Positions 2,446-64,000 of a stretch of DNA of 64,000 nucleotides are shown here, piece after piece (the stretch's first letter is position 1; every line of letters starts with the position of its first letter). Under the pieces are notes generated by a model. It saw only the letters and a program-made list of their open reading frames with translations, did no database searches and was not told the origin of the DNA. The stretch comes from Thalassotalea sp. LPB0316 (lineage in GTDB: Bacteria; Pseudomonadota; Gammaproteobacteria; Enterobacterales; Alteromonadaceae), in the NCBI RefSeq assembly GCF_014898095.1, contig NZ_CP062946.1, forward strand, positions 682,001 through 746,000, read 5' to 3'. The position numbers were made by a program, and so were the translations under genes.

Positions 2446-3272
2446 AAGTGTAATTGCCCATCGAATACATGCACTGCAGGACCTGACATTTTGACTGAAT
2501 GGCCAGGACCTTTCCAAAAAATACGTAATTTACCACCGGGAAGCTCAACCGTCACTTGGTTGGCGAGCTTTTTCTGAATTTGCCCTACCACTACGGCTGC
2601 ACAAGCACCACTGCCACAAGCGAGTGTTTCACCTGCGCCGCGCTCATAAACCCGCAACTTAACAAACTTGTCTGAGACAATTTCCATAAAGCCAACATTT
2701 GCTTGCTCAGGAAAACGCTCGTGGTGTGAAATTTCAGCACCCAAGGTTTCGACCGGAGCAGATTCAATATCATCGACCGTGACCACGCAATGCGGGTTAC
2801 CCATTGAAACCGCGCCACAAAATACGGTTTCATCGTCAGTGCGAATAATATACGTGCCTTCTTTTTTCTGCGCTTGAAATGGAATTTGATTCGGTTCAAG
2901 TTGCGGGACGGGCATATGCACCGAAATATTGCCGTCGCGCTCAACAAATAGCGTCATCTTGCCTGCTTGCGTTGACACTTTGATCTTGGTTTTATTGGTC
3001 AGCCCTTTTAATCGGACAAACTTGGCGAAACAGCGCGCGCCATTGCCGCACTGGCTAACTTCGCTGCCGTCAGCATTAAAAATGCGATAGTGGAAATCTA
3101 GATCGGGATCATACGGCGGCTCAACAACTAACAGTTGGTCAAAGCCGACACCAAAATTGCGATCCGCCAACTGCTTAATTTGTTCATTCGATAAAAAGAC
3201 ATTCTGCGTGACATTGTCTAACACCAAAAAGTCGTTACCTAGACCATGCATTTTTGAAAAATTTACTAACAT
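2442..3272 (-). CDS. dapF: diaminopimelate epimerase
   Basis: Interconverts LL- and meso-diaminopimelate in lysine and peptidoglycan synthesis. The protein is 276 aa, the normal length, with start ATG at 3272 giving [15 protein letters not shown]. The two catalytic cysteines are visible: Cys75 in SQCGNGARC and Cys219 in [11 protein letters not shown], each in the family signature context. It follows lysA by 10 bases and overlaps the next gene by 4, so lysA and dapF, the last two steps of meso-DAP/lysine metabolism, are co-transcribed. Upstream in-frame codons extend into lysA and are not needed. Confidence 0.97.
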
Positions 3273-3282
3273 ACCACTCTTC

Positions 3283-50970: not shown

Positions 50971-51034
50971 ATTCTTGGCTAATCACTAAACTTAATTACC
51001 TAACAAATTACCGTGTTTTGCATGAAATGACAAT

Positions 51035-51046
51035 CATTTGGCACGT
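51035..51046. promoter_or_regulatory. candidate operator shared with the GMC gene, copy 1
   Basis: CATTTGGCACGT, 108 bases before the DUF1302 start, occurs identically at 63746-63757, 116 bases before the GMC oxidoreductase start. It lies between the AraC-type regulator and DUF1302. The idea that the AraC protein binds it is inference. Confidence 0.4.
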
Positions 51047-51153
51047 ATAGCCTCCCTTTTTCTAGGGATTTGTCTGTATCTTAGAGGCGTCAGTTCGATA
51101 ACAATTTCGAACAATTTAAAAAAACTAATACTGACAAACCTTCTGGGGGATAT

Positions 51154-53016
51154 ATGAGCATATTACGCAACAACAAAAGCGCACTTGGCTTAGCCATTGG
51201 TGCTGCTTTATTCGCGTCAAACGCCAACTCAGCTGAGTTCTACTTTGGTGAAAATGATGACATTTTACTCACCATAAACTCTCAGTTATCAATTGGTGCA
51301 AGCTGGCGCATTGAGGATCAAGACCCTCGCTATATTTCAGCAAACAATGGTGGCACAGGTGCAACCATGACGACTGACGATGGTAATTTGAACTTTGACA
51401 AGGGCGACACCTTCTCAAAAATTATCAAGGGTTCACACGAGCTACAATTATCAAAAGACAATTACGGTGCTTTTGTTCGTTTCAAATACTGGCATGACAA
51501 AGAACTTCAATACGAATCACGTCCTTTTGGCCATTCACCAAACGGTTATGAGCCAGGTGCGCCGCTAAATGACGATGGTTTTCAAAATTACTCAAAGTTT
51601 TCTGGCATCGCGTTACTTGACGCGTATGTCTACGGCACATTTGAGTTAGGTGAGTCGTTACTTGACGTACGTGTTGGTCGCCAAGTGTTGAGCTGGGGTG
51701 AGTCAACGTTTATCCAAGGTGGTATGAACTCTACCAACCCATTTGATGTAAGTGCATTGCGCCGCCCTGGTGCCGATCTTAAAGAAGGTATTTTACCTGT
51801 CGGCATGGTATACGGTAACTTAGGCCTGACGGAAAACTTATCGATTGAAGCATTTTACCAATACGAGTGGGAAAAGTTCGCCATTGATGCCTGTGGTACC
51901 TTATTCCAAGGCGCTGACTTTGCCGCAGATGGGTGTAACTACATTCAAGTAGGTGATACGCCAGAGAAGATAGCTTTCGATTTAGGTATTCACGCTGAGC
52001 GTCGCCCTGATATTGAACCTGATGACGGTGGCCAATACGGTTTAGCAATGCGCTATTTTTCACCTGAGCTCAACGACACTGAGTTTGGCTTGTACTACAT
52101 GAACATTCATTCTCGCGTACCGTTAATCAATGCAGTTCGCACAGCCGTACCTTTGGCTACAGGTGACTCATCGTTAATTTTTGTGCCTAAAGGGCTAGAT
52201 CCAACAGGTGGTCAACTAGCTGCATTAAATCCTGCTTACGCCATTGCGTTCCCTGAAGATTTAAAGTTTTACGGGGCTAGCTTTGCAACCAACGTTGCTG
52301 GTTTAGCGTTATCTGGTGAAGTTTCATACAAGCCAGATACACCGGTACAGATTAATGGACCAGAAATTTTAAATGCTGCACTTTCTGAGAACCCAGCATT
52401 CCGTTTTACCGACCGTATGACATCAGTGGGCTACGGTGAAATGGTACAAGGTTGGGATGAGTACGATGTCACTCAAATTCAAGTCACTGCTTTACAGTTT
52501 TTTGAACGCGTGATGGGGGCTGCTCGCTTAACCGTAATCGGTGAAGCTGGGGTCATTTTAACAGATGGTATTGAAGATTCAGATCAACGCTACGGCCGCA
52601 ACGCTGTATTTGGTTTAGGTGATTTTGATGCCGGCTTTACTCATCCAGTAGCGGGTTTCCAGGTTAACTGTAGCAACTTACTGGCCGCTGGCGCTATTGC
52701 TGGCGACTGTTCAAATGACGGCTATGTTACTGACTCAGCATGGGGTTACCGCTTACGAGCTATTTGGGATTACCCTGATGTTTACGCTGGTATTTCACTT
52801 AAGCCGACGCTTGCTTGGTCACACGATGTCAGTGGTTATTCTCCTGAGCCAGCACAACAATTCAACGAAGGTAAAAAAGTTTTAGGCTTATCTCTTGAAG
52901 CATCATACCTTCAAAAATACAGTGCAACTGTAGGGTATTCTCAATTTTCAGGCGGTAGTCATAACATCTTGACTGACAAAGACTTCGTTTCTCTCAGCTT
53001 TGCAGTTTCATACTAG
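51154..53016 (+). CDS. DUF1302 family outer-membrane protein
   Basis: A 620-aa exported protein. The signal peptide of about 26 residues ends ANS before AEFYFGEN. The rest reads as alternating amphipathic strands with many Tyr/Phe/Gly and ends FVSLSFAVSY, with a terminal aromatic like beta-barrel porins. DUF1302 proteins are usually paired with DUF1329 and often lie with genes for alkane, terpene, sterol or aromatic breakdown; uptake of hydrophobic substrates is suspected but unproven. A strong GGGGGA ribosome site precedes the ATG. Confidence 0.93.
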   Translation: MSILRNNKSALGLAIGAALFASNANSAEFYFGENDDILLTINSQLSIGASWRIEDQDPRYISANNGGTGATMTTDDGNLNFDKGDTFSKIIKGSHELQLSKDNYGAFVRFKYWHDKELQYESRPFGHSPNGYEPGAPLNDDGFQNYSKFSGIALLDAYVYGTFELGESLLDVRVGRQVLSWGESTFIQGGMNSTNPFDVSALRRPGADLKEGILPVGMVYGNLGLTENLSIEAFYQYEWEKFAIDACGTLFQGADFAADGCNYIQVGDTPEKIAFDLGIHAERRPDIEPDDGGQYGLAMRYFSPELNDTEFGLYYMNIHSRVPLINAVRTAVPLATGDSSLIFVPKGLDPTGGQLAALNPAYAIAFPEDLKFYGASFATNVAGLALSGEVSYKPDTPVQINGPEILNAALSENPAFRFTDRMTSVGYGEMVQGWDEYDVTQIQVTALQFFERVMGAARLTVIGEAGVILTDGIEDSDQRYGRNAVFGLGDFDAGFTHPVAGFQVNCSNLLAAGAIAGDCSNDGYVTDSAWGYRLRAIWDYPDVYAGISLKPTLAWSHDVSGYSPEPAQQFNEGKKVLGLSLEASYLQKYSATVGYSQFSGGSHNILTDKDFVSLSFAVSY

Positions 53017-53024
53017 GAGTTATC

Positions 53025-54386
53025 ATGAAAAATTTATTCAAAGTAACCGGCCTATTATCGATTACGTTAATTGCTAGCGCAGTTAACGCGAAAGTGAGCC
53101 CACAAGAGGCAGCCAAATTAGGCTCAGAGCTCACTTACATCGGTGCCGAAAAAGCAGGAAATGCCGCAGGAACCATTCCTGCGTATACCGGTGGTTTAAC
53201 AAGCACTAACACACCAAAAAGTGAAGATAGTGGCCGCCCAAACAACCCGTTTCCTAACGATAAAGTACTGTTCACTATTACCAACAGTAATTTAGATCAG
53301 TACAAGGCTAATTTATCGCCAGGTCAAATCGCGATGTTTGAAAAGTACCCGAGCTATCGCATGCCGGTTTATCAAACCCGCCGCACAGCAGCCTATCCAG
53401 CAAGCTTGCATAGCGTTATTAAGAAAAATGCCGAAAATGCTGAGCTCATACAAGGGGGCAATGGTTTAGCAAATTTTGACACCACGATTCCTTTTGCCAT
53501 TCCGCAAAATGCCAACGAAGTTATTTGGAACCACATCACGCGCTATCGCGGTGGCTCAGCCCGTCGTTTCCTAACGACAATTCCAGCGCAAGCAGATGGC
53601 TCTTTTGTACCGGTAAAAATGAATGACCAACTCGTTTGGCCTGAATTTTTAGACGGTGGTCGTGATGCTAAGAAAGACGACAATATTTTGTTCTACTATC
53701 TGCAAGTCATCACTGCGCCTGCGCGTTTAACGGGTACCGCATTAATGGTTCACGAAACGATTGATCAAGTTTCAGAAGCGCGTAAAGCTTGGGTTTACAA
53801 TGCCGGGCAACGCCGAGTTCGCCGAGCGCCAAACGTCTCGTATGACGGTCCAGCGGCAGGTACTGATGGCTTAAGAACGTCTGATAACTACGATATGTAC
53901 AATGGTGCGCCAGATCGTTACGACTGGAAGTTAGTCGGTAAGAAAGAATTATACATTCCATATAACTCATACCAATTAATGGACACCAGTGCCAAATACA
54001 AAGACTTGATCCAAGCAGGGCACTTAAACCCAGATTACTTGCGTTACGAGCTACACCGCGTATGGGAAGTTGAAGGAACCTTGAAAGAAGGTGCTCGCCA
54101 TATCTACGCTAAACGTACCTTGTTTATCGACGAAGACACTTGGGGTGCATCGGTCATTGATCACTACGATGGTCGCGGTGACCTATGGCGTGTCGCTGAA
54201 GCGCACAACGTTCAATTTTACGACGTAGATACGCCTTGGATGGTCGCTGAAGCCTTATACGACTTAAACTCAGGTCGCTATATAACAACAGGTTTAAGTA
54301 ACGAAGAGCCTAAGTTTATGGTGTGGGGTGAGAAGAATAGTCGCAAGGCATTTTCAACTTCTGCATTGCGTCGAATCGGCAAATAA
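53025..54386 (+). CDS. DUF1329 family protein
   Basis: A 453-aa exported protein (signal peptide of about 23 residues ending VNA), DUF1329 family, possibly related in fold to lipoprotein carriers of the LolA/LolB type. It has SPQEAAKLGSELTYIGAEKAGN, the conserved GGRDAKKDDNILFYYLQV, and PDRYDWKLVGKKELYIPYNSY. It follows DUF1302 by 8 bases and the pair is almost always found together. Its role in moving hydrophobic substrates across the periplasm is inference. Confidence 0.93.
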   Translation: MKNLFKVTGLLSITLIASAVNAKVSPQEAAKLGSELTYIGAEKAGNAAGTIPAYTGGLTSTNTPKSEDSGRPNNPFPNDKVLFTITNSNLDQYKANLSPGQIAMFEKYPSYRMPVYQTRRTAAYPASLHSVIKKNAENAELIQGGNGLANFDTTIPFAIPQNANEVIWNHITRYRGGSARRFLTTIPAQADGSFVPVKMNDQLVWPEFLDGGRDAKKDDNILFYYLQVITAPARLTGTALMVHETIDQVSEARKAWVYNAGQRRVRRAPNVSYDGPAAGTDGLRTSDNYDMYNGAPDRYDWKLVGKKELYIPYNSYQLMDTSAKYKDLIQAGHLNPDYLRYELHRVWEVEGTLKEGARHIYAKRTLFIDEDTWGASVIDHYDGRGDLWRVAEAHNVQFYDVDTPWMVAEALYDLNSGRYITTGLSNEEPKFMVWGEKNSRKAFSTSALRRIGK

Positions 54387-54436
54387 CAAGACATAGCGAT
54401 CAAAAAAGGCCGGGGTATCCTGGGCTGACGATATTG

Positions 54437-54464
54437 GGGATCTCAAATTTGAGATCCCTTTTTT
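54437..54464 (+). terminator. intrinsic terminator of the DUF1302-DUF1329 operon
   Basis: GGGATCTCAAA and TTTGAGATCCC form a perfect 11-bp palindrome followed by TTTTTT on the plus strand, 50 bases after the DUF1329 stop. Confidence 0.92.
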
Positions 54465-54576
54465 ATTTCCCTAAGAAATTTGCTACCTCTAGTGACTTAA
54501 TCCATTTAAAAATATTAGAAAGTAGCTCTTCAACCCTTGCTGTATAAAGGATTCCTAGAATTTGATATATGCCTCA

Positions 54577-55554
54577 TTAAAGTAGCTTACTCAATGGGCT
54601 AACCACTCCATTAGCACCTTGTTGTAAAACATGGGTATATATCTGTGTCGTTTTAACGTCTGAGTGACCAAGTTGGCTTTGCACAGTACGAATATCGGCA
54701 CCCGATTGTAGTAGATGAGTTGCAAACGAATGCCGTAAGGTATGAGGTGTAATTGGTTTAGTAAGTTGTGCTTTTAATGCTGCCTTTTTAATAGCTTTGC
54801 GCACTCCCGTTGGATAAAAGTGATGTCGTCTTATTTCGCCTGTTTCTGGATCTGCACTTAACTTATAAGAGGGAAATAGATATTGCCACGCCAGAGATTT
54901 GTTAGCTGATGGATATTTACGAGCAAGGGCATTCGGCATCCAAACACCAGAATATTGCTCGTTTTTAATGTCAAACTGCAAATAATCGTTGACCTGAATT
55001 ATTTGACTTCGCAATAAAGGAACTAACTCGCTAGCTAAAGTCACTATGCGGTGTTTATTGCCTTTGCCATTCCATATGCGAATGCTTTTATAATCGAAAT
55101 CAATGTCTTGAACTCGTAGTTGCACAGCCTCCATCACGCGCAAACCACTACCGTACATTAAGCCTGCGATTAAGTAATAGCGTTTATCTAAAAATGACAT
55201 CAACAATTTTACTTCATCAGGTGTCATAACAATGGGAAGTTTTTGCTGTTTTTTACTACGTACAAATACTAGGTTGGGCGACAACTCTTGTTTTATGATG
55301 TGTTTATATAAAAATGCCAGCGCATTTAAAGCCGTAGCTTGAGTTTTAGGCGACACATTTTTCTTCAAAACTAAATAATCTAAATATTTCTCAACCTCGT
55401 TATCTCCCATAGATGAGGGGTGTCGCTTGTCGTGATAATTAATAAACCCTGCAATCCATTTTAAGTAAGTGTCAACGGACCGCATAGAATATTGTTTGGT
55501 TAGCATGTAATCTACGATTGAGTTTAAAAAAGGCGAACGTGTTCTCATCATCAT
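54577..55554 (-). CDS. intI: integron integrase IntI (chromosomal type)
   Basis: A 325-aa tyrosine recombinase. The catalytic residues are Arg139 (GSGLR), Lys164, His271 and Arg274 (HTLRH), His297 (LGH) and Tyr306 (TQIYTH). Between residues about 200 and 245 (SGVWMPNALARKYP, then YPTGVRKA) is the extra segment that separates integron integrases from XerC/D and lets them bind folded attC. It faces away from the cassettes, as in all integrons. Three in-frame ATGs open the gene; GGA lies six bases before the third (55548), which may be the true start. A LexA-type box 16 bases upstream implies SOS control. Confidence 0.95.
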   Translation of the reverse strand: MMMRTRSPFLNSIVDYMLTKQYSMRSVDTYLKWIAGFINYHDKRHPSSMGDNEVEKYLDYLVLKKNVSPKTQATALNALAFLYKHIIKQELSPNLVFVRSKKQQKLPIVMTPDEVKLLMSFLDKRYYLIAGLMYGSGLRVMEAVQLRVQDIDFDYKSIRIWNGKGNKHRIVTLASELVPLLRSQIIQVNDYLQFDIKNEQYSGVWMPNALARKYPSANKSLAWQYLFPSYKLSADPETGEIRRHHFYPTGVRKAIKKAALKAQLTKPITPHTLRHSFATHLLQSGADIRTVQSQLGHSDVKTTQIYTHVLQQGANGVVSPLSKLL

Positions 55555-55570
55555 TCCATTGAAATTTAAC

Positions 55571-55586
55571 CTGTATACATATACAG
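55571..55586. promoter_or_regulatory. lexA box: LexA (SOS) box upstream of intI
   Basis: CTGTATACATATACAG is a full CTG-N10-CAG palindrome with the alternating T/A centre of gammaproteobacterial LexA sites. It ends 16 bases before the first intI ATG. Repression of intI by LexA and induction by single-stranded DNA are established for class 1 and Vibrio integrons. Confidence 0.88.
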
Positions 55587-55587
55587 T

Positions 55588-55612
55588 TTGACTATTTTGC
55601 CTCCATAGTCAA
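55588..55612. promoter_or_regulatory. inverted repeat next to the LexA box
   Basis: TTGACTAT and ATAGTCAA are perfect complements with a nine-base spacer, next to the LexA box. It could be another operator or an integrase-binding element in the attI region. Confidence 0.4.
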
Positions 55613-55643
55613 GAAAACGAGTAAATGGATCGTTTTCTACTTT

Positions 55644-55673
55644 TTGTTAGCAAGTGATTTCTCTAAATAATAA
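55644..55673 (+). promoter_or_regulatory. candidate cassette promoter Pc
   Basis: TTGTTA, 18 bases, TAATAA, reading toward the cassettes. It lies between intI and attI where Pc is expected. The match is moderate and other A/T-rich choices exist nearby. Confidence 0.3.
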
Positions 55674-55721
55674 TAATTTAGCAATAGTTTAAGATGTATG
55701 GTAAAACTGGTTCAATCAGAT

Positions 55722-55779
55722 AAACGACCCAACCAATGGTAGAAAAACGACCCGTTGGGTCGATATTAAATTGTTATAT
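55722..55779 (+). other. attI: attI recombination site
   Basis: The region ends in GTTATAT (55773-55779), the point where the first cassette joins (cut after the G). Upstream are two copies of AAACGACCC (55722-55730 and 55745-55753), like the directly repeated integrase sites of attI1, and an inverted repeat CGACCC-GTT-GGGTCG. Location between intI and the first cassette is diagnostic. The exact left limit is not certain. Confidence 0.75.
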
Positions 55780-55794
55780 GCGCAGGGAGTTTGC

Positions 55795-56115
55795 ATGAAA
55801 TATTGGATAATACTTCTAACATTTTTTTCTTCTTATTCTTTAGCATCGACCACTAAGTTTGAGTGTAAATATCATGATTATAATTTGGTACTAAAAGCTG
55901 GAGGCAATGATCATATTGTTCATGAACTTAGTATTAACGGCAAATTCGTAATTGATGAATTAATTGAAGGCATCTGGTTTATCGAAGAAATAAATTGTAG
56001 AAAAGAAGGCTATGAAATTATTGCTAGTCATATCCAGTTCAACGACCCAACTCAAAAGAGTTTCATGTTAACTTACCATCCAGATAAAGGTTATAAAATC
56101 GAAGCTGGCATATAA
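55795..56115 (+). CDS. cassette 1: small secreted protein, unknown
   Basis: A 106-aa product with a signal peptide (MKYWIILLTFFSSYSLAS) and an unrecognised mature domain of about 88 residues (KFECKYHDYNLVLKAGGNDH) with two Cys. The ATG at 55795 has CAGGGAG before it. The stop codon lies inside the outer core box of attC1. First cassette after attI, so best expressed from Pc and probably the most recently inserted. Confidence 0.75.
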   Translation: MKYWIILLTFFSSYSLASTTKFECKYHDYNLVLKAGGNDHIVHELSINGKFVIDELIEGIWFIEEINCRKEGYEIIASHIQFNDPTQKSFMLTYHPDKGYKIEAGI

Positions 56116-56214
56116 CAAACCAATTAAGCACGGGACTGCTAAAGCTTGGCTCAGTTCCGCTTCGCTACACAAGTTTAGCCAAGCATTTATCAGCCCCTTA
56201 TTGGGGCGTTATGT
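56110..56214 (+). other. attC: attC site of cassette 1
   Basis: Outer box ATATAAC and core GTTATGT bracket 105 bases with inner complementary arms (CTTGGCT with AGCCAAG; CAATTAAG near CTTATTGG). This is the resident attC type, shared with cassettes 2, 4 and 7. Confidence 0.92.
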
Positions 56215-56239
56215 ACCTTTCAAGGATTGAGGTATCAAT

Positions 56240-56665
56240 TTGACCAAGCATAATCTCCTTCTGGGTTTCAGTTACGCTGCGATTTGGCTTGGCGTAACCA
56301 CATTAATTTTTCAGTTTGGTTTTGAGTTTCCAATGTCTTGGACGCAATCAATACTAGAAACCCCTCATTTATCCGAATCATTAAAAATACTTAGCATACG
56401 GACTTTATGGACTGTTGAATTTGCTTTACATATATTGCTAGCGTCAATTCCCTCAAGTTACCTTATCGTAAAATTTTCCACTGATATCTCATTCAAAACT
56501 ATTGCTAAAATTTCTCTTATTTCGCTTGTATTCTTATCGGCATTCTTACTAGCTGTAATGCCCAAATATGTGCCGTTTTATTTTGCACTATTGTATGTAA
56601 CTATAAGCTTTGTATATATTTTATATGGCTGTGTTAGGTGCATGAGGTACATAACAAGCCAATAA
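56240..56665 (+). CDS. cassette 2: small membrane protein, unknown
   Basis: A 141-aa product starting at TTG with GAGG eight bases earlier. Four hydrophobic segments (about 7-27, 48-76, 84-104, 107-130) and a basic end. No family is recognised. The frame ends 10 bases inside attC2. Confidence 0.7.
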   Translation: MTKHNLLLGFSYAAIWLGVTTLIFQFGFEFPMSWTQSILETPHLSESLKILSIRTLWTVEFALHILLASIPSSYLIVKFSTDISFKTIAKISLISLVFLSAFLLAVMPKYVPFYFALLYVTISFVYILYGCVRCMRYITSQ

Positions 56666-56753
56666 AGTGATGGGACTGCTAATGCTTGGCTCGGTTCCGC
56701 TTCGCTTCACAAGTATAGCCAAGCATTATCAGCCTCTTATTGGGGCGTTAGCT
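56649..56753 (+). other. attC: attC site of cassette 2
   Basis: Outer box ACATAAC, core GTTAGCT, 105 bases, with inner arms GCTTGGCT and AGCCAAGC. Almost the same sequence as attC1. Confidence 0.92.
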
Positions 56754-56766
56754 GTACAAGGAAGTT

Positions 56767-57108
56767 ATGAGTAGCATCAAATTTCATTCCAAATGGGAGG
56801 CTGAACTGCAATCTGAAGAGGTTGTAATTTCGGGAATTTGGTATTACCAAAACGAAATTCCATATACAGCTGAACTAATCAAACAAAAATGGAATTATAG
56901 AAGCGCCGATTTAACTATTCTTGATGAAATTCTTGAAGTTCCATTTTGTGATTATATTGATTACTCTATTAGTGATGAGGGAGTAATATGGTTTTGGCGT
57001 TTTCAAAATGGAAATAAAAAAACGAGCAGTCCTACTTTTCCAACATTTTTCTTAGCCAGAGACCATATTAATACTTATGGTTATAAGTACAAGTTAGAAG
57101 AGCGCTAG
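56767..57108 (+). CDS. cassette 3: small soluble protein, unknown
   Basis: A 113-aa product, ATG with AAGGAAG just before it. Rich in aromatic residues (GIWYYQNEIPYT; GVIWFWRFQNGNKK). No signal peptide or membrane segment. No family is recognised. Confidence 0.7.
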   Translation: MSSIKFHSKWEAELQSEEVVISGIWYYQNEIPYTAELIKQKWNYRSADLTILDEILEVPFCDYIDYSISDEGVIWFWRFQNGNKKTSSPTFPTFFLARDHINTYGYKYKLEER

Positions 57109-57112
57109 GTAC

Positions 57113-57212
57113 AGCTAACAAGCCAATCAAGTCGGACGTATAACAGTTGGCTGCGTTCACTTCGTTCACAATTATAGCCAACTATTATCCGCCGCTTATT
57201 GGGGCGTTATAT
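57113..57212 (+). other. attC: attC site of cassette 3
   Basis: Outer box AGCTAAC, core GTTATAT, 100 bases; inner arms AGTTGGCT and AGCCAACT. A variant of the resident type. Confidence 0.9.
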
Positions 57213-57216
57213 ACCT

Positions 57217-57534
57217 ATGGAAGCATCGAAGAAGTCAGCATTTTTAGCAGGTGGAATTATCGTAATTAGCGGAATGCTAATTGAATCATTGTCACTTCCA
57301 TTTTCTTGGGTGTTAAGCACGCTCGTATTTTTTCCAACAATCTTTTATCTGGTCATAGGTAAAGAGATTCATCGAGAATATAAACGAGGTGCCCATATTA
57401 GTAATGGCTTTTATAAAGGACCTAAAGATACTGAAGGCAAGCGTATATATGGTCGGGTCTTTTTACGTATGTTAATTTGGTTTTTAGGTGCAGTTGTAAC
57501 TAGTATTTTAATCACAGTAATAAGCGGTATATAA
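57217..57534 (+). CDS. cassette 4: small membrane protein, unknown
   Basis: A 105-aa product from ATG 57217, 10 bases after the cassette junction; no clear ribosome site. Two hydrophobic segments near the N terminus (about 8-47), a basic polar loop (KEIHREYKRGAHISNGFYKG) and a C-terminal helix. It ends inside attC4. No family is recognised. Confidence 0.65.
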   Translation: MEASKKSAFLAGGIIVISGMLIESLSLPFSWVLSTLVFFPTIFYLVIGKEIHREYKRGAHISNGFYKGPKDTEGKRIYGRVFLRMLIWFLGAVVTSILITVISGI

Positions 57535-57632
57535 CAAGCCAATTAAGCGCGGGACTGCTAAAGCTTGGCTCAGTTCCGCTTCGCTACACAGTTTAGCCAA
57601 GCATTTATCAGCCCCTTATTGGGGCGTTAGGT
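57529..57632 (+). other. attC: attC site of cassette 4
   Basis: Outer box ATATAAC, core GTTAGGT, 104 bases, nearly identical to attC1 including the GGGACTGCTAAAGCTTGGCT arm. Confidence 0.92.
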
Positions 57633-57639
57633 AACACAA

Positions 57640-58050
57640 TTGAGTCCAGAGAGAATTCAAACATCGGCGTTAATATTGTTAGGTTTATTACCTGCAACAA
57701 TATTGTTGTTATTTTCTTTCATTCCCTTAGGCATCAATATTATTTTTATCTTTGATGATGAATTTGATTTCTCTTTCGCTATGTTATTACCGTGCATCGG
57801 AGCATTGCTAGGTTACGTGGGGTTGGTAGCTTCAGTTTTTAGGTTTCATATTTCAAATACTTTAAAAACTGTATTTCTTGCTATTGGTATTATTGCTGTG
57901 CTTTTTGTTGCTTATGACGGTTTAAGTGACCTAGCAAAGCCTTATAATTTGTGGTTAAGATATTGGTATGGCTATTTTTATTTATGCCCCGTAATAGTCG
58001 CAGTATATCTAATAGTTCGTAATCTGAAAGACCGAGAAATTGTTACCTAA
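57640..58050 (+). CDS. cassette 5: four-helix membrane protein, unknown
   Basis: A 136-aa product starting at TTG, with AGGT seven bases earlier, formed partly by the recombination core. Four predicted transmembrane helices (about 10-37, 45-66, 75-94, 108-127). No family is recognised. Confidence 0.65.
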   Translation: MSPERIQTSALILLGLLPATILLLFSFIPLGINIIFIFDDEFDFSFAMLLPCIGALLGYVGLVASVFRFHISNTLKTVFLAIGIIAVLFVAYDGLSDLAKPYNLWLRYWYGYFYLCPVIVAVYLIVRNLKDREIVT

Positions 58051-58143
58051 CAAGTTACTCAAAAGGACGCAAAACGCTTGGCTCGCGCTCCTTCGTCGCT
58101 AATTTTAGCCAAGCATTTTACGCCCATTAGTAAGGCGTTAGCT
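58045..58143 (+). other. attC: attC site of cassette 5
   Basis: Outer box ACCTAAC, core GTTAGCT, 99 bases; inner arms GCTTGGCT and AGCCAAGC. It differs from the resident type in the outer part (AAAAGGACGCAAAACG). Confidence 0.9.
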
Positions 58144-58157
58144 ATACAAGGAGTTCC

Positions 58158-58574
58158 ATGAGCGATCCGCAGAAAACTTGGGAAGAATATTACTCCCGAA
58201 TCAAAAATAGAAAAATCGATGAAGCAACTCAACTGTGGAATGCTGTTGTAAGTTCAGGTGCAAATGAGGAAACAATATTCGCTATGGATTTTTCTCATTT
58301 CTGTGACGTTTCATCGAAGTTAAATGAATTAGCTCAACAACTCACTGAAAACTATGAAATTAAGCTTAGTGAAGTTGACGAAAAAGGATATCAACTACTT
58401 ACTGGCACGACTCGCCCATATGGTAATGAATTGAGCAAAGAAGACTTCATAAACTGGGTTGAATTTATGTGTGATGTAGCTCAATCATACAGCTGTGTCT
58501 TTTCAGAGTTTTCAATCGAAAGTCCTGAACTTGGACAAGTATGGTCAAATACAGAATTTGAATCGGAAGTATAG
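58158..58574 (+). CDS. cassette 6: small soluble protein, possibly RraB-like
   Basis: A 138-aa acidic product; ATG with AAGGAG before it. The pattern DFSHFCDVSSKLNELAQQL, then YQLLTGTTRPYG, then LSKEDFINWVEFMCDVA resembles the RraB/DUF695 fold (RNase E inhibitor family). The resemblance is weak and unconfirmed. No signal peptide. Confidence 0.7.
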   Translation: MSDPQKTWEEYYSRIKNRKIDEATQLWNAVVSSGANEETIFAMDFSHFCDVSSKLNELAQQLTENYEIKLSEVDEKGYQLLTGTTRPYGNELSKEDFINWVEFMCDVAQSYSCVFSEFSIESPELGQVWSNTEFESEV

Positions 58575-58678
58575 CTAACAAGAGAATAAATAGTGATTCA
58601 CAGTAGTTTGTCACTTTTAGTTGCAAACAACGCAATAAAATTGCCAAACTAGGCTCACACATTATTCAGGCGTTATGT
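58573..58678 (+). other. attC: attC site of cassette 6, divergent type
   Basis: Outer box AGCTAAC, core GTTATGT, 106 bases. The inner arms are TAGTTTG and CAAACTA rather than the CTTGGCT arms of its neighbours. It marks a cassette from a different attC lineage. Confidence 0.82.
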
Positions 58679-58690
58679 GTTTCGTATAGT

Positions 58691-58999
58691 ATGAGTTTCA
58701 AAAAAAGTGACGAAGGTTTCGAATGTGAAACCGTACAAAAGAAGCAAAGCTATATCCATAAGGATTGTATCGTTAAGATCTTCGGGTATACACAGGACTT
58801 AGGCACTTACGATGAACTAAGACTGGGTATAGAGACTACACATGGAGTTACCTACCATTTTTCCGAAGAAGAAGCAGGTTGGCAAAGTTTAGTGGATTGG
58901 GTTAAAGACTTCGCCTCGTTAGAAAGTGATTGGATGTCAAAAGCGTATCCTGAGCCATTTTCACGAGAAATTAAAACGCTGTGGGAAATAAACACATAA
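58691..58999 (+). CDS. cassette 7: small soluble protein, unknown
   Basis: A 102-aa product, ATG 18 bases after the junction; no good ribosome site. Contains DCIVKIFGYTQDLGTYDELR and GWQSLVDWVKDFASLESDWM. No signal peptide or membrane segment; no family is recognised. Confidence 0.65.
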   Translation: MSFKKSDEGFECETVQKKQSYIHKDCIVKIFGYTQDLGTYDELRLGIETTHGVTYHFSEEEAGWQSLVDWVKDFASLESDWMSKAYPEPFSREIKTLWEINT

Positions 59000-59098
59000 C
59001 AAGCCAATTCAGAAATGGGACTGCTAATAGCTTGCTCAGTTCCGCTTCGCTACACAATTTTAGCAAGCTATTATCAGCCCCTGATTGGGGCGTTAGCC
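58994..59098 (+). other. attC: attC site of cassette 7
   Basis: Outer box ACATAAC, core GTTAGCC, 105 bases, resident type with inner arms TAGCTTGCT and AGCAAGCTA. Confidence 0.92.
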
Positions 59099-59113
59099 AT
59101 CCTTATCTAAATC

Positions 59114-59160
59114 TTGCATAAAACTTAAAAAAGGTATACTTTTTATATCATGTATACTTT
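59114..59160 (+). promoter_or_regulatory. promoter/operator of the cassette toxin-antitoxin pair
   Basis: TTGCAT and TATACT with 15 bases between are a possible promoter inside cassette 8. GTATACTTT occurs twice (59134 and 59152), the second copy overlapping the toxin start; GTATAC is itself palindromic. This fits autorepression by the BrnA antitoxin, which binds repeats at its own promoter. Confidence 0.5.
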
Positions 59161-59416
59161 CGAATATGATCCCAAGAAAAGTGAAATCAATCTCGATAAA
59201 CACGGAATCGATTTTGAGGAAGCTCAATCATTGTGGAATGATCCTGATTTAGTTGAGATCCCTGCAAATACAAGTGATGAACCCCGTTCTCTAGTTATTG
59301 CTATCCACAAAGGTAAATGCTGGTCTGCTGTAATAACTCATAGAACACCAAATGTTCGTATTATTTCTGTCAGACGTTCTAGAAAAAATGAGGTGGAATT
59401 CTATGAAAGCTTCTGA
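59150..59416 (+). CDS. brnT: cassette 8: BrnT family toxin
   Basis: An 88-aa ribonuclease toxin of the RelE-like BrnT family. Family motifs: FEYDPKKSEINLDKHGIDFE at the N terminus, EEAQSLWNDPDLVEI, and the C-terminal VRIISVRRSRKNEVEFYE with the Arg/Glu residues used in catalysis. It overlaps the antitoxin gene by 14 bases, with the toxin first, the normal BrnTA order. Known BrnT cleaves RNA and inhibits growth. Confidence 0.92.
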   Translation: MYTFEYDPKKSEINLDKHGIDFEEAQSLWNDPDLVEIPANTSDEPRSLVIAIHKGKCWSAVITHRTPNVRIISVRRSRKNEVEFYESF

Positions 59417-59624
59417 GTTTGATAAAAAGTTTGATGATGGTGAAGATATTTTATCTAATCTTGACCTATCTAAAGCTAAGCGTACTACCCAAGAAACTAA
59501 GCGAGTAAATGTCGACTTCCCAACATGGATGCTTGATTCGCTCGATCGTGAGGCTAGTCGTGTTGGCGTAACTAGGCAATCCATAATTAAAGTTTGGCTT
59601 GCAGAGCGCTTAGAGCACCTATAA
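59403..59624 (+). CDS. brnA: cassette 8: BrnA family antitoxin
   Basis: A 73-aa antitoxin, start ATG at 59403 with GAGGTGG before it. The N terminus (MKASEFDKKFDDGEDIL) is the toxin-binding arm and the C-terminal half (RVNVDFPTWMLDSLDREA, then GVTRQSIIKVWLAERL) is a ribbon-helix-helix DNA-binding domain. Expected to neutralise BrnT and repress the pair. Confidence 0.92.
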   Translation: MKASEFDKKFDDGEDILSNLDLSKAKRTTQETKRVNVDFPTWMLDSLDREASRVGVTRQSIIKVWLAERLEHL

Positions 59625-59642
59625 AGTCATCAGGTAAAGCAT

Positions 59643-59732
59643 GGCTAACAAGCGCCTAAACTCCGACAATGTGAAGTTGTCATGGTTTTGGCACACTACG
59701 CAAAAAGCCATGCCAACCATTGCGTGTTAGCC
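59643..59732 (+). other. attC: attC site of cassette 8, second type
   Basis: Outer box GGCTAAC, core GTTAGCC, 90 bases. Outer arms GGCTAACAAGCGC and GCGTGTTAGCC; inner arms ATGGTTTTGGCA and TGCCAACCAT. Different in sequence from the resident attC type. Confidence 0.87.
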
Positions 59733-59759
59733 GGACAAGAGAACGATCGAGATAAACAA

Positions 59760-61112
59760 ATGAATTATTGCAAAAAAATATACCGAATGAAGCCTGTCGC
59801 ACTTAAGTTACCTGCGCTGGTCGGACTGCTGGCGGTTTTCTTAACGCCGCCCAGCATGGCACAGCATCCGCTCGACATAGAAACTGTGTCGGATGCTTAT
59901 GTCTACCTGCTGGGGCGGTCGATTGTTATCCGACAGGAGCATACGGATATTGCCGAGCCGGCTGTTGACTACAACGTGATCAAGTACAACCCTGTCGGCT
60001 CGGCAGAATTCGTGAATCCGAACCTCGACGTTGCCTATCTCGAGGCATGGATTGCCGTGGATGACAAGACGCCCGTATTGCTCGAAATTCCAGAGATCGG
60101 GGACCGTTACTATACCGCGCAGATTTGTAACGAATGGGGCGACGTGATTGTTAATATCAACGAGCGTAATTTCCCGTCGAACCCTTCTGGCAAGTTTGCT
60201 TTTGTTGCTCCAGGCTCCAAAGCCAAGGTCCCTGCCGATGCCGTGCGTATTGAATTGCACTCTCGCAAGGCAAAGATGCTCGCTCGTGTTGAGCTAAAAA
60301 CAAATACCGAAGAGGCGATAGCACTGCAAAAGCAATTCAAGCTCAGGGCGCTCGGCGAACCCGTGATTGAACCGGCGACTCCGATACCGGAGTTTGGCAA
60401 CAAAGAATTGCTAGGCGTCGAAATTTTCGACTATGCCGAGCCGGTACTGAACAGTGCTCTGGATATCTCACCAATCGCCGCACGCATGCAAGCAAGGGTT
60501 CACGATATAGCATTGCAAGCCAAGGATAAGCAACACCGGGATAAGTTGGATACGATGATCAGAACTCAGGTAGTGCCAAATTTTCTGCAGTACGCGGTGA
60601 CCAAATCCGGCGTATTCAAAAACAACTGGCTTGGAACGCTCGGCACCGGCAACTACGGAAGCGACTACTGGATGCGGAGCTCCGCTAACCTGGTAGGCCT
60701 TTGGGCCAACACGAATGATGAGGTAATCTACTTTGTCGCAACCAAGGATGCCGAAGGCCAACCTCTCAACGGATCGAATGACTATGTGCTTGAGTTTCCT
60801 GCAGCAAGTCGCCCGGACGCCGTAGTGGATGGTTACTGGTCGGTGATTCTCGTCGATGTACCAGACTATCGCGTTGTGCCTAACTCGTTAAATCGTTTTA
60901 ACTTAAATAGTTATTCTGGATTGAAGTTCGAGCCCGACGGGTCATTGAGGATTCTTGTGGCCAAAAAGCCGAATGCCAAAGTGCCAGAATCCAATTGGCT
61001 CCCTTCTGCTGATGGCAAAGGTTTTTCGCTTACCCTAAGAACCTACGTACCGAAAGACATAGTTAAGAGGGGAGACTGGTTTCCTCCAAGCCTCACAAAG
61101 GTTGCTCAGTAG
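59760..61112 (+). CDS. cassette 9: DUF1254/DUF1214 domain protein, GC-rich
   Basis: A 450-aa exported protein, by far the largest cassette product. ATG at 59760 with GAGAT before it; a signal peptide follows, best from Met10 (KPVALKLPALVGLLAVF, cleaved after SMAQ). The N-terminal DUF1254 part has VYLLGRSIVIRQE and FVNPNLDVAYLEAWI; the C-terminal DUF1214 part has NYGSDYWMRSSANLVGLWAN, SNDYVLEFPA and GYWSVILVD. The family is secreted and of unknown function. Base composition is near 50-53% GC, clearly above the neighbouring cassettes, indicating transfer from another lineage. Confidence 0.9.
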   Translation: MNYCKKIYRMKPVALKLPALVGLLAVFLTPPSMAQHPLDIETVSDAYVYLLGRSIVIRQEHTDIAEPAVDYNVIKYNPVGSAEFVNPNLDVAYLEAWIAVDDKTPVLLEIPEIGDRYYTAQICNEWGDVIVNINERNFPSNPSGKFAFVAPGSKAKVPADAVRIELHSRKAKMLARVELKTNTEEAIALQKQFKLRALGEPVIEPATPIPEFGNKELLGVEIFDYAEPVLNSALDISPIAARMQARVHDIALQAKDKQHRDKLDTMIRTQVVPNFLQYAVTKSGVFKNNWLGTLGTGNYGSDYWMRSSANLVGLWANTNDEVIYFVATKDAEGQPLNGSNDYVLEFPAASRPDAVVDGYWSVILVDVPDYRVVPNSLNRFNLNSYSGLKFEPDGSLRILVAKKPNAKVPESNWLPSADGKGFSLTLRTYVPKDIVKRGDWFPPSLTKVAQ

Positions 61113-61122
61113 AGCTTTGGGC

Positions 61123-61192
61123 GGCTAACAAGGCGCTGCACAAGGACAAATTTACGCTTCGCTCCAATTTGCCAGTGAGCTTGGCGTTGGTT
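61123..61192 (+). other. attC: attC site of cassette 9, short type
   Basis: Outer box GGCTAAC, core GTTGGTT, only 70 bases; inner arms GGACAAATT and AATTTGCC around TACGCTTCGCTCC. The core reads GTTGG rather than GTTA. Short attC of this kind are typical of cassettes in other integrons. Confidence 0.82.
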
Positions 61193-61214
61193 TCTCAATA
61201 GATTGGAGTCACAA

Positions 61215-61481
61215 ATGACAGATGGAGATCCTAAAAAAGCAGGTGAAACAATACTTGAAGTTGTGGACAATCAGATAAACGCTAATGACCCTCCTTTGGT
61301 TAAGGAAACATTTAATCGTTTACGTAAACTTGGTATTAGCCGAAGAGAATCAAAAAAATACATTGCTTGTGCTTTATCTGTCGAAATATTTGATGTTGTC
61401 AAAAATAGCAACGAAATTGACTATGATAGGTATTTTACTAATCTTCAAAATCTGCCCGAGATGCCATGGGATGATGAGTAG
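61215..61481 (+). CDS. cassette 10: conserved small protein, unknown
   Basis: An 88-aa soluble product, ATG at 61215 with GGAG six bases before it. It has LEVVDNQINANDPPLVKETF, LGISRRESKKYIACALSVEI and the ending LPEMPWDDE. I recall similar small proteins of unknown function in varied bacteria but cannot name the family. Confidence 0.75.
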   Translation: MTDGDPKKAGETILEVVDNQINANDPPLVKETFNRLRKLGISRRESKKYIACALSVEIFDVVKNSNEIDYDRYFTNLQNLPEMPWDDE

Positions 61482-61484
61482 AGA

Positions 61485-61588
61485 AACATACAAGCCAATA
61501 AAGCATGGGACTGCTAAAGCTTGGCTTTTGTCACTGCGTTCCATATTTTAGCCAAGCTAATTATTTGCCCTTAGTGTAGGCGTTACCG
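61485..61588 (+). other. attC: attC site of cassette 10, damaged outer box, end of array
   Basis: The core GTTACCG (61582-61588) and inner arms CTTGGCT and AGCCAAG are present, but the outer box reads ACATAC instead of the ACATAAC seen in cassettes 2 and 7, a loss of one A. No further attC follows, so this is probably the array end. Confidence 0.75.
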
Positions 61589-61981
61589 ACGTCTGCTATA
61601 ACAATTAACTCTTAATTTAAATAAAATCTGCAACCATCTCTGATTAGCACAAAGCTACTATCAATAGTCGCCTATAAATGGAGGATATCCCGTTCTTCAA
61701 CGGGATGACGGTACTAGTTTTCTTACTTCTGTAACTGGTACTTAGTGACCATAAAAACTACGAAAAAGTTTAGCTGCTACCCTAACGAAAGCACTAGTGC
61801 ACTAAAACAACTAAATTATTGTATTTATTAATATAGAACCGTTACTTTGTAATTTTATCAATGACTTTTCTATTCTTAATTTATTGACTTTAATTGATAT
61901 TAAAAATAAATAGGGACCACATAGAGCCCTAATTGCGTATCAGTTCAGGGTTATCCCGCCTTTTTTATTACCAAAACTATT
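61589..61981. other. non-coding stretch after the integron
   Basis: About 390 bases, AT-rich, with no open frame that looks coding on either strand. It holds the second copy of the dispersed hairpin repeat (61682-61740) and, at its right edge, the terminator of the GMC gene. No attC, tRNA or direct target repeat was seen. Confidence 0.6.
61682..61740 (-). repeat. dispersed hairpin repeat, copy 2
   Basis: Reverse complement of the element at 24731-24790 with only a few changes over about 59 bases. The same eight-pair hairpin ATCCCGTT-GAAG-AACGGGAT is intact (the copy reads ATCCCGTT-CTTC-AACGGGAT on the plus strand). It lies about 100 bases after the last attC. Confidence 0.8.
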
Positions 61982-62014
61982 TGGGATTTAGCGCAAATTG
62001 ACGCTAAATCCCAG
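61970..62014 (-). terminator. intrinsic terminator of the GMC oxidoreductase gene
   Basis: TGGGATTTAGCG and CGCTAAATCCCA form a perfect 12-bp stem with an eight-base loop, 9 bases after the gene's stop; the minus strand continues AATAGTTTTGG. The T run is weak but the stem is strong. Confidence 0.8.
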
Positions 62015-62022
62015 TTACTTTT

Positions 62023-63630
62023 TTAGAGGTTATGCGCTTGTTTAATGAAATCAGCCGCTTTTTCACCAATCATAATAGTTGGCGCGTTGGTATTACCGCT
62101 AACCAGTGTTGGCATAATTGACGCGTCAACCACGCGTAAGTTTTCGATACCATAAACTTTTAATTGAGCATCGACCACGGCTTGTTGATCGTCCGCGGTT
62201 CCCATTTTACAGGTGCCAACAGGGTGGTATTGGGTATCTGCGCGATTGCGAATATCTTGCTCCATTGCCACGCGATCACCTTGCTCTACGTGATACAGCA
62301 TCTTTTCATTAATCGATGCTAATGGCTCGGACTCCAGAATTTTCTGCATGCGTTGCGCACCTTCTAGCAGTACTTCCATGTCCGCTGGATCATCAAAAAA
62401 TCTCGGATCGATATCTAATGACTCACTTGGATCTGCCGAGCGCAATCTAACCTCTCCGCGAGATTCAGGACGCAACAAGGTAATATGGCAACTAATACCA
62501 TGACCAAGGTTTACCGTACGGGCATGATTATCGACAATACCTGCAACCCAAACTAACTGAACATCAGCGCTCGGCACATCTTCGTTAGTCTTGTAAAACG
62601 CGCCCGACTCGGCAATTGTACTGGTAACTTTACCTTGACGAGAATTCTTCCACTTAACAATTTCTTTGAGCATGTGAACACCGCCGGTGAAACTCAAACC
62701 AAAAGAATCTTCTGACGCCTTGACTTTAAAGGTTTGGACATAGTCGATATGATCTTGTAAATTTTGACCAACCCCCGGTAAATCTTTAACAACTTCAATG
62801 CCGTGCTCTGCTAAATGGGCTTTTGGGCCAATACCTGACAACATCATTATTTGTGGTGAACCAAACGCGCCAGCACTTAAAATAACTTCTTTGTTAGCAA
62901 ACACTTCCTGCACTTTACCTTTAACACTAAAGCGCACGCCTGTTGCAACATTGGCTTGCGTGATCACTTTTTCAGTTAGCGCATGAGTAATAACCGTTAA
63001 ATTAGGGCGATCTAAATTGGGGGTTAAATAAGCTTTTGCCGCACTCCAACGTTCACCGTTTCTCACTGTTCGCTGGTACATGAAACAACCGTCTTGTGTT
63101 TCACCATTATAATCAGGGTTACGCGGCAGACCTTGTGCCTCACAAGCCTGTAAAAACAGTTCGTTATATGGGCTGGCATCAGTTGCATCACTGACGTACA
63201 AAGGGCCGTCATTGCCGTGATACTCATTGACCAAACGCTCATTGTTTTCTGACTTTTTGAAATAAGGTAGCACCTCATCATAACTCCAACCGGCGTTGCC
63301 AAGCTCAGCCCATTGGTCATAATCGAAACGAGCACCACGGACATATAACATCGCGTTAGTCGATGAGCTACCGCCTAGCGTTTTACCTCTTGGTTGGTAA
63401 CCTTTACGGCCATTTAACCCTGGTTGAGGGACTGTTTCAAACGCCCAGTTATTGTGCTTGGTCGGGAGCATTGCTGCGACCCCCATTGGTGCGTGAATAA
63501 ATGGGCTAGTGTCAGGGCCACCGGCTTCCAGTAAGCAAACGGTTACATCTGGATTCTCCGACAAACGGCCAGCCAGTGCACAACCAGCAGAGCCTCCCCC
63601 GACTATAATGAAATCGTATGTGTTTGACAT
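62023..63630 (-). CDS. GMC family FAD-dependent alcohol dehydrogenase
   Basis: A 535-aa glucose-methanol-choline oxidoreductase. FAD-binding [18 protein letters not shown] lies at residues 6-23, GMC signature 1 at [20 protein letters not shown], signature 2 at [16 protein letters not shown], the active-site HPVGTCKMG and the C-terminal [19 protein letters not shown]. The style is that of AlkJ-like and choline-dehydrogenase-like enzymes that oxidise primary alcohols to aldehydes and pass electrons to the membrane. With the aldehyde dehydrogenase and acyl-CoA synthetase at 46.8-49.8 kb it would complete an alcohol-to-acyl-CoA route. Strong GAGG ribosome site. Confidence 0.93.
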
Positions 63631-63745
63631 TTTACTTCCTCAACCTGTTGCTGCCATTTCGATGAATTATTATTAAATTTGGCAGTGTGATATTAAATCT
63701 CTACTCTATATCCTATTTCACTACCTCTGCGCGGCTTAAGCAAGA

Positions 63746-63757
63746 CATTTGGCACGT
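63746..63757. promoter_or_regulatory. candidate operator shared with DUF1302, copy 2
   Basis: CATTTGGCACGT, identical to 51035-51046, 116 bases before the GMC start codon but in the opposite orientation relative to the gene. TTGGCGG follows 21 bases later and may be a second half-site. Confidence 0.4.
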
Positions 63758-63948
63758 TAGGACAATAAGTTGGCGGATTGCTCTTTTTGTTTAAACACTA
63801 GCAACATCAGCGTAACATTTCAGCCATATTTTCTAAAAATTCAAACAAGTGTTTAGTTAAAGATAAAAGTTTGGCGTAGTCAGAACATTTAATTATGGTT
63901 AATCTCACTAATAATGATCATCCCTTTAACTATTCCATCAAGATAATA

Positions 63949-64000
63949 ATGAAGAAAAGATACCAAGGGTTGAAGTTGTTTTGCCTCATCGCTCTTCTAC
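63949..64000 (+). CDS. possible start of an exported protein (cut by the window end)
   Basis: ATG at 63949 opens a frame MKKRYQGLKLFCLIALL that continues to the window edge. The two lysines, arginine and hydrophobic run look like a signal peptide. Only 17 residues are visible and no strong ribosome site precedes it, so this is tentative. Confidence 0.4.
   Translation, partial: MKKRYQGLKLFCLIALL

What the first reader, a model, noticed from the sequence alone, without database searches (positions are those of the whole stretch)
54577..61588. Chromosomal integron with ten cassettes in a catabolic neighbourhood
An integron integrase with catalytic Arg139/Lys164/His271/Arg274/His297/Tyr306 and the integron-specific insert is followed by attI and ten cassettes, all oriented away from it, each ended by an attC with outer box, paired inner arms and GTT core. 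Most cargo is small and unrecognised: one secreted, three membrane, and several soluble proteins. Such arrays are known reservoirs of anti-phage and adaptive genes, so these short unknown proteins deserve testing as a set.
Basis: partly seen in the sequence, partly recalled or inferred. Interest (0 to 1): 0.8.

Follow-up and report, generated by a model that had tools for sequence, protein, structure and literature searches.

The report
Integron whose cassettes swap recombination sites
This is a genuine gene-capturing integron with ten small gene cassettes in a marine Thalassotalea-like bacterium; the array itself is ordinary, but one of its genes, and some genes of related arrays, turn up elsewhere little changed yet joined to unrelated recombination sites, which suggests that cassettes can exchange the very tags by which they move.

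Summary
In detail: an intact integron integrase (54577-55554, minus strand), attI and ten co-oriented cassettes to 61589; attC8-10 are atypical. As a system it is ordinary. The genome has a second integron (17 attCs, another integrase). The window's IntI is 97% identical to that of Pseudoalteromonas peptidolytica, where FtsY is 62%, so the module moved between genera. Cargo: BrnT/BrnA, DUF1254/DUF1214, a RraB-fold protein (c6) and seven unknowns; no PADLOC hit in the 10 of 11 proteins scanned. More interesting: c6 occurs in five other genomes of 394 searched, with the same 5' edge, but the three closest copies (88-94% identical) carry unrelated attCs (56-64%), changing just after the R'' box. 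Of 16 between-genome pairs with bodies at least 85% identical (six families), 9 (four families) have replaced and 7 (three families) kept attCs; three of the four replaced families come from one array, that of genome G229. I infer attC exchange at R'', perhaps by IntI itself; the mechanism is unproven. It matters because attC sequence is used in print to trace cassette origin.

The parts
54577..55554 (-). intI, integron integrase, 325 aa, intact
   Evidence: TIGR02249 455 bits; catalytic residues; 391 bits to PDB 2a3v
55571..55586 (.). LexA-box-like near-palindrome 16 bp upstream of the intI start (LexA reading recalled)
   Evidence: pattern copied from the window; + strand exact, - strand 2 mismatches; with up to 3 mismatches 0.34 matches expected by chance in the window, 3 found, the third at 48640; similar boxes visible in L005 and L006
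55600..55776 (+). attI region (left edge approximate)
   Evidence: nt homology to P. peptidolytica and T. marina runs through intI and stops at 55775-55780, the first cassette edge
55795..56115 (+). cassette 1 CDS, 106 aa, signal-peptide-like start (by eye), unknown
56111..56213 (+). attC1, type A
   Evidence: 112.4 bits R1 (training member); fold z -3.23
56240..56665 (+). cassette 2 CDS, 141 aa, membrane-like (by eye), unknown
56650..56752 (+). attC2, type A
   Evidence: z -3.78
56767..57108 (+). cassette 3 CDS, 113 aa, 7 homologues found
   Evidence: similar attC kept in G015, body 78.8%, attC 82%
57114..57211 (+). attC3, type A-like
   Evidence: z -4.30
57217..57534 (+). cassette 4 CDS, 105 aa, membrane-like (by eye), unknown
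57530..57631 (+). attC4, type A
   Evidence: z -2.51
57640..58050 (+). cassette 5 CDS, 136 aa, membrane-like (by eye); distant kin in L048 and L012
58046..58142 (+). attC5; 94% identical to the attC that follows c6 in genome G459
   Evidence: z -4.80
58158..58574 (+). cassette 6 CDS (c6), 138 aa, RraB-like fold
58574..58677 (+). attC6, type B: the commonest attC of the second integron of this genome, not the attC that c6 carries in the five other genomes
   Evidence: 100% to L003 13285-13388; at most 66% to any other-genome attC among the 239, but 91-94% matches exist in G304, G203 and G451
58691..58999 (+). cassette 7 CDS, 102 aa, near-orphan (1 homologue)
58995..59097 (+). attC7, type A
   Evidence: z -3.62
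59150..59416 (+). cassette 8: BrnT ribonuclease toxin
   Evidence: PF04365 82.6 bits, cut-off 34.5
59403..59624 (+). cassette 8: BrnA antitoxin
   Evidence: NF047399 127.6 bits, cut-off 60
59642..59737 (+). attC8, atypical R' end
   Evidence: z -3.01; 84% to an attC in L025
59760..61112 (+). cassette 9 CDS, DUF1254/DUF1214 protein, GC 0.51 against 0.31-0.40 for the other cassette genes (scanned from 59763)
61124..61192 (+). attC9, short
   Evidence: 75% to an attC in L041; does not outfold shuffles
61215..61481 (+). cassette 10 CDS, 88 aa, unknown
   Evidence: body kin in G161 ending at R''
61487..61589 (+). attC10, type A, decayed R'' box
   Evidence: 70.5 bits R1 (training member); z -0.57

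Best explanation
A conventional, probably functional chromosomal integron: IntI, seemingly under SOS control, captures and reorders cassettes by recombining folded attC hairpins with attI and with each other. It is not a co-evolved sedentary integron: the intI-attI module was exchanged between alteromonad genera, and this genome runs a second integron with which it shares attC types. Shown by comparison: in this order of bacteria the gene part of a cassette and its attC are separable. Copies of one cassette keep the same 5' edge (seen for c6) and bodies 88-98% identical but may carry unrelated attCs, changing just after the R'' box. Inferred: attCs are replaced by recombination at R'' after the cassette was born, for example when two neighbouring attCs recombine at R'' instead of R', so that a cassette acquires its neighbour's attC. 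In c6 the attC found here is the commonest type of the second integron; the cassette may have got it there and moved into the window's array by ordinary shuffling.
For: Integron. LexA-like box. Transfer of IntI: identity to P. peptidolytica, T. marina, an ALOHA Thalassotalea MAG and T. loyana 97, 97, 92 and 77%, FtsY (label recalled) 62, 80, 83 (partial) and 91%; nt homology stops just past the intI stop and at the attI point. Second integron; other attCs. attC exchange: c6 in six genomes is homologous from the 5' cassette edge through R'' and unrelated after it, save that G140/G482 and G212/G229 resemble each other. Of 16 between-genome pairs with body >=85% over >=150 nt, 9 have attC at or below 72.1%, the 95th percentile of random attC pairs, and 7 have attC within 10 points of the body (it printed 18 pairs, two dropped because contig lengths show one assembly under two handles). 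Mean identity of the 60 nt before R'', of R'', and of the two following blocks: 92.4, 100, 61.1, 66.4 for replaced pairs; 93.6, 100, 90.6, 94.9 for kept pairs. Kept pairs speak against fast attC decay. Added afterwards: G229-G582 body 96.2, attC 64.
Against: No recombination was observed. In the window the replacement rests on c6 alone; the three other replaced families share one partner, the array of G229. Two of the nine replaced pairs (attC 70 and 71%) lie close to the threshold; the second half of the attC still reaches 82% in G229-G512 and 73% in G229-G502. Places first left out and checked later are mixed: G229-G358 89.2/68 (R'' of G229 altered), G593 84.9/74, G530 79.6/78, the last not replaced. 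c3 kept a similar attC in G015 (78.8/82). Lower-identity pairs (c8, c10, B16576) are weak because attC may simply diverge; some have no attC there at all. The direction of replacement is not known. Two bodies of 86% and 98% identity run to R'' but no R'' box or attC follows.
Confidence: 0.78

Rival explanations
1. attC replacement arises without integrase, by rare deletion between short direct repeats: the conserved R'' letters of neighbouring attCs act as microhomology, deleting one attC and the next gene.
For: All nine changes lie just after the shared R'' letters; replication slippage needs no enzyme specificity.
Against: The shared stretch is only about 6-8 nt; the c6 family alone shows at least three attC types in genomes with 88-94% identical bodies, so several such events in one family.
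Confidence: 0.3
2. Gene conversion (homologous recombination) between attCs of an array homogenises them, as proposed for Vibrio 59-base elements (PMC1382264).
For: Published proposal (passage read); attC6 matches the type B sites of the same genome.
Against: Replaced and replacing attCs are hardly more alike than random pairs (57.0 sd 9.8), so there is little homology to start from; the change is sharp at R''.
Confidence: 0.2
3. Each c6 cassette was born separately: the same gene was captured several times next to different attCs.
For: Would give the same gene with different attCs without any exchange; how cassettes are born is unsolved (PMC4792948, passages).
Against: All six copies share the same 5' cassette edge and non-coding leader, expected from one birth.
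Confidence: 0.08
4. Ordinary integron only: the attC differences are just divergence or alignment noise.
For: Low-identity pairs alone cannot tell; some replaced attCs keep shared motifs.
Against: Pairs with 98% bodies and 68% attC (G229-G502, G229-G535), beside kept pairs at the same body identity.
Confidence: 0.07

Closest known systems
Sedentary chromosomal integrons of Vibrio (IntIA, VCR sites; features recalled)
   Same: IntI, attI, co-oriented array of small, mostly unknown, low-GC cassettes with a toxin-antitoxin cassette; many near-identical attCs in the second integron of this genome
   Different: Only ten and about seventeen cassettes; IntI not co-inherited with the host; two attC types shared by two integrons of one genome
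Shewanella integrons with several integrases per strain and lateral transfer of intI (PMC9229058, passages read)
   Same: Several integrases in one genome, horizontally moved chromosomal integrases, orphan attC clusters
   Different: Another genus; attC exchange between homologous cassettes was not in the passages I saw
Alteromonad integrons with IntI 92-97% identical (P. peptidolytica L005, T. marina L006, ALOHA MAG L007)
   Same: intI and attI at about 89% nt identity (87% for the displaced attI stretch of L007)
   Different: Other flanks; by eye they share about 110 nt past the intI stop that the window lacks; in L007 intI and attI are about 2.1 kb apart
BrnT/BrnA type II toxin-antitoxin
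   Same: c8 toxin and antitoxin, overlapping genes
   Different: Carried as an integron cassette; function not tested
RraB, regulator of RNase E (PF06877, VC0424/1nxi)
   Different: No sequence-profile match: none in Pfam at E<=1, hhalign probability 0.4% with a host RraB

Membership tests
Integron | Integron-type tyrosine recombinase with catalytic residues and integron-specific insert | tested here: met
   (place of the insert recalled)
Integron | attI next to intI, conserved with the integrase | tested here: met
   homology of intI plus the stretch to 55775-55780 with L005/L006, stopping at the first cassette
Integron | Array of co-oriented cassettes each ended by an attC | tested here: met
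   ten cassettes; 8 of 10 attCs outfold shuffles; attC9, attC10 weak
Integron | Recombination activity | not testable with these tools
   only indirect: cassette turnover and near-identical duplicated cassettes in the second integron
Sedentary chromosomal integron co-evolved with its host | IntI inherited vertically | tested here: not met
   IntI 97% but FtsY 62% to P. peptidolytica; same-genus T. loyana IntI 77%, FtsY 91%
Mobile integron | Carried by a transposon or plasmid | tested here: inconclusive
   single 3.55-Mb contig with genes on both sides that have orthologues in relatives; no family match to a transposase among the proteins scanned from 51154-63630, but no target-site or terminal-repeat search was done
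BrnT/BrnA toxin-antitoxin | Toxin and antitoxin family scores over curated cut-offs | tested here: met
   PF04365 82.6 (34.5); NF047399 127.6 (60)
RraB (PF06877) | Sequence-profile match | tested here: not met
   no Pfam match for c6 to RraB at E<=1; hhalign 0.4%
RraB (PF06877) | Fold | tested here: met
Known anti-phage defence systems (PADLOC) | Match to a PADLOC model | tested here: not met
   0 hits at E<=1 for 10 of the 11 cassette proteins; c9 not scanned

The most novel reading that the evidence does not exclude
Integron integrases also recombine attCs at the R'' box (the site of the normally neglected top strand), so that cassettes exchange their attC with a neighbour. Cassettes would then be three separable parts (5' edge plus gene, R'' joint, attC core). 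Repeated exchange with the commonest attC of an array would explain how arrays become uniform in attC although their genes come from many hosts, and would let an integron convert a foreign cassette to the attC its own integrase prefers.
Probability: 0.35. Interest if true: 0.8.

Novelty: new member of a known kind. Interest (0 to 1): 0.5.

Why it matters
attC sequences are used in print to assign cassettes to source taxa (PMC8352920, passages) and to trace cassette transfer (PMC1382264, passages), which assumes that gene and attC travel together. If attCs are replaced at R'' as often as in this small sample (four of six high-identity families), attC often reports an array that a cassette sat in, not where its gene came from. 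It also gives a testable route to attC uniformity, an issue tied to cassette genesis, for which one paper of 2016 says that no reliable model is available (PMC4792948, passage).

Tried and rejected
Rfam for attC: no match in 50000-64000 at E<=1. A motif-and-complementarity scan gave 9 candidates in 54000-64000, one of them false (inside c6); it missed attC8 and attC10 and gave false sites outside arrays, so covariance models were used. The dominant attC type as a host label: rejected, since type A occurs in both integrons here, in T. loyana, T. marina and some Pseudoalteromonas, and type B-like sites at 91-94% in three genomes of other families. Defence cargo: nothing in PADLOC for 10 of 11 proteins; PHROGs gave only BrnT and one weak unknown for c7 (c9 not given). 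c3 structure: mean pLDDT 69.7, not searched further. c6 on plasmids: none. Sigma-70 scan of 54400-56300: 7 promoter-like sites against 6.7 expected by shuffling, so no Pc promoter is claimed. c6 as an RraB member by sequence: rejected. Of the matches only the 30 returned loci entered; four further places were fetched later and, with L212, L213 and three loci of an insertion sequence, looked at (G582 96.2/64, G358 89.2/68, G593 84.9/74, G530 79.6/78; G583 and G585 without attC there; the insertion-sequence rows not used); other places were not read. Within-genome duplicates: the ten pairs with bodies of at least 99.1% have attCs of 94-100%; those in L058 (84-95% bodies, attC 72-96%) are mixed and were not used. 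PMC12901181 (passage) recounts the idea that the L box of attI1 recombined with R'' of attC to make odd resistance cassettes, the nearest printed idea I saw. I found no report of attC replacement between homologous cassettes in these searches; most subscription journals are not held, so priority is open.
Full report
What is there. The window lies at 682001-746000 of a single 3.55-Mb contig. Sixteen bases upstream of its start lies a near-palindrome that reads as a LexA box (the LexA reading is recalled). The attI region follows, then ten cassettes up to 61589, all on the plus strand.

Quality of the attCs. Folded as the single bottom strand, eight of ten attCs beat nearly all of 200 shuffles; attC9 and attC10 do not. 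attC10 has lost the standard R'' letters and attC8 has an odd right end, but attC8 and attC9 have relatives at 84% and 75% in other genera. Six or seven of the ten belong to one family (type A); attC6 is of another (type B).

Neighbourhood and history. The array lies between a DUF1329 gene, with a terminator-like stem, and a GMC oxidoreductase. In a genome of another genus (G043) the same interval holds an MBL-fold-like and a TetR-like gene (labels recalled) and no integron; in T. loyana and G013 there is no nt match to the DUF1302/DUF1329 pair at that place. The integrase has closer relatives outside the genus than within it: 97% to Pseudoalteromonas peptidolytica and T. marina, 77% to T. loyana, while FtsY (label recalled) gives 62, 80 and 91%. 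The nt homology is cut off just past the intI stop and at the attI point. The intI-attI module therefore moved between genera. Several integrases per genome and lateral transfer of intI are known from Shewanella (PMC9229058, passages), so this is a new case of a known thing.

A second integron. The same chromosome has a second integrase (43% identical, 2619202-2620149, minus strand) followed by 17 attCs, eleven of type B and six type A-like, with repeated cassettes, and perhaps an eighteenth at 2628771 (52.7 bits). Further attCs lie at 253121-254729, 2808130-2808755, 1164035 and 2289398. attC6 of the window is identical to a type B attC of the second array, and type A attCs occur in both, so the two integrons seem to trade cassettes. 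Type B is not private to this genome: 91-94% matches lie in G304, G203 and G451.

attC and gene part company. A search of 394 genomes of the order found c6 in five besides its own, each time followed by an attC and in four of the five also preceded by one. The six copies align from the shared 5' cassette edge, through a non-coding leader, the gene and the R'' box, and then fall into several unrelated attC types. Body and post-R'' attC identities to the window are 93.9/64 (G140), 89.5/60 (G459), 87.7/56 (G482), 71.5/56 (G229) and 71.5/59 (G212), against 57.0 (sd 9.8; 95th percentile 72.1) for 400 random attC pairs. The attC that follows c6 in G459 is 94% identical to attC5 of the window, which here follows a different gene.

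Is it general? From 265 cassettes in the 62 sources that gave hits, of 91 searched, against all loci then held, between-genome pairs with bodies at least 85% identical over at least 150 nt were taken, provided that both had an R'' box (239 of the 265 served as queries). Replaced meant attC at most 72.1%, kept meant attC within 10 points of the body. It printed 18 pairs; two at 100% are one assembly under two handles and were dropped. Of the 16 left, in six families, nine pairs (four families: c6 and three of the array of G229) have a replaced attC and seven pairs (three families, c6 among them) kept it. Identity steps from 92.4% in the last 60 nt before R'' to 61.1% just after it in replaced pairs and stays at 90.6% in kept pairs. 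The kept pairs speak against attCs simply evolving faster. Places first left out were checked afterwards: G229-G582 96.2/64 and G229-G358 89.2/68 look replaced, G593 84.9/74 is in between, G530 79.6/78 is not replaced. Lower-identity pairs (22 between-genome pairs, many of them c6 again, 19 with attC at 68% or less) agree but are weak, since attC could merely have diverged. The relatives of c8 are mixed: two have attCs of 59 and 52% at 75-76% body identity; two others (68 and 71%) share an inner stretch with attC8 by eye but also lie under the threshold; in the remaining five no attC of the kind was seen.

Mechanism. Normal cassette exchange cuts at R', so a cassette takes its own attC along; a change at R'' needs something else. 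The top strand of attC can recombine, about a thousand times less than the bottom strand (PMC8946536, passage), and by the standard geometry that cut falls in R'' (recalled). Recombination of two neighbouring attCs at R'' would join gene 1 to attC 2. Short-repeat deletion between R'' boxes gives the same product, and gene conversion has been proposed for attC uniformity in Vibrio (PMC1382264, passage). Separate births of the c6 cassette are unlikely because the 5' edge is shared. I put IntI-made exchange at 0.35, short-repeat deletion at 0.3, conversion at 0.2.

Verdict. The separability of gene and attC at R'' is the part that a specialist would want to test.

Noticed in passing
G000:C1:2619202-2628200 (L003 10200-19200): A second integron in the same genome with its own integrase, 17 attCs and cassettes present in two or three nearly identical copies.
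   Followed up: yes
L155 and L192 (minus strands; motif at about 363 and 2554): Two different cassettes in two genomes (G339, G543) run to the start of R'' and then into the same sequence of some 90 nt; in L192 a weak Y1 transposase-like gene lies beside it (E 0.0079, below cut-off). It may be an element that inserts in attCs.
   Followed up: partly
L147 (reversed) about 2520-3826 and L193-L203, L207 and others: A repeated element of about 1.3 kb, insertion-sequence-like, ends at an attC whose R'' lacks one A, as in attC10 of the window; it recurs in many genomes of that family.
   Followed up: no
L007 1466-3566: In the ALOHA Thalassotalea MAG about 2.1 kb of other DNA separates intI from attI.
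   Followed up: no
G171 (L153, minus strand, about 1980): The body of a second-integron cassette (about 87% identical) ends exactly at the R'' position, but no R'' box or recognisable attC follows; possibly a cassette that lost its attC or a non-cassette relative.
   Followed up: partly
G013:C2:63886-64150 and several family genomes: Broken or partial integrase matches are frequent in the family (internal stops or fragments).
   Followed up: no
window 54400-54576: By eye L005, L006 and L007 share about 110 nt past the intI stop that the window lacks, so the window's module seems cut at the intI stop on that side.
   Followed up: partly
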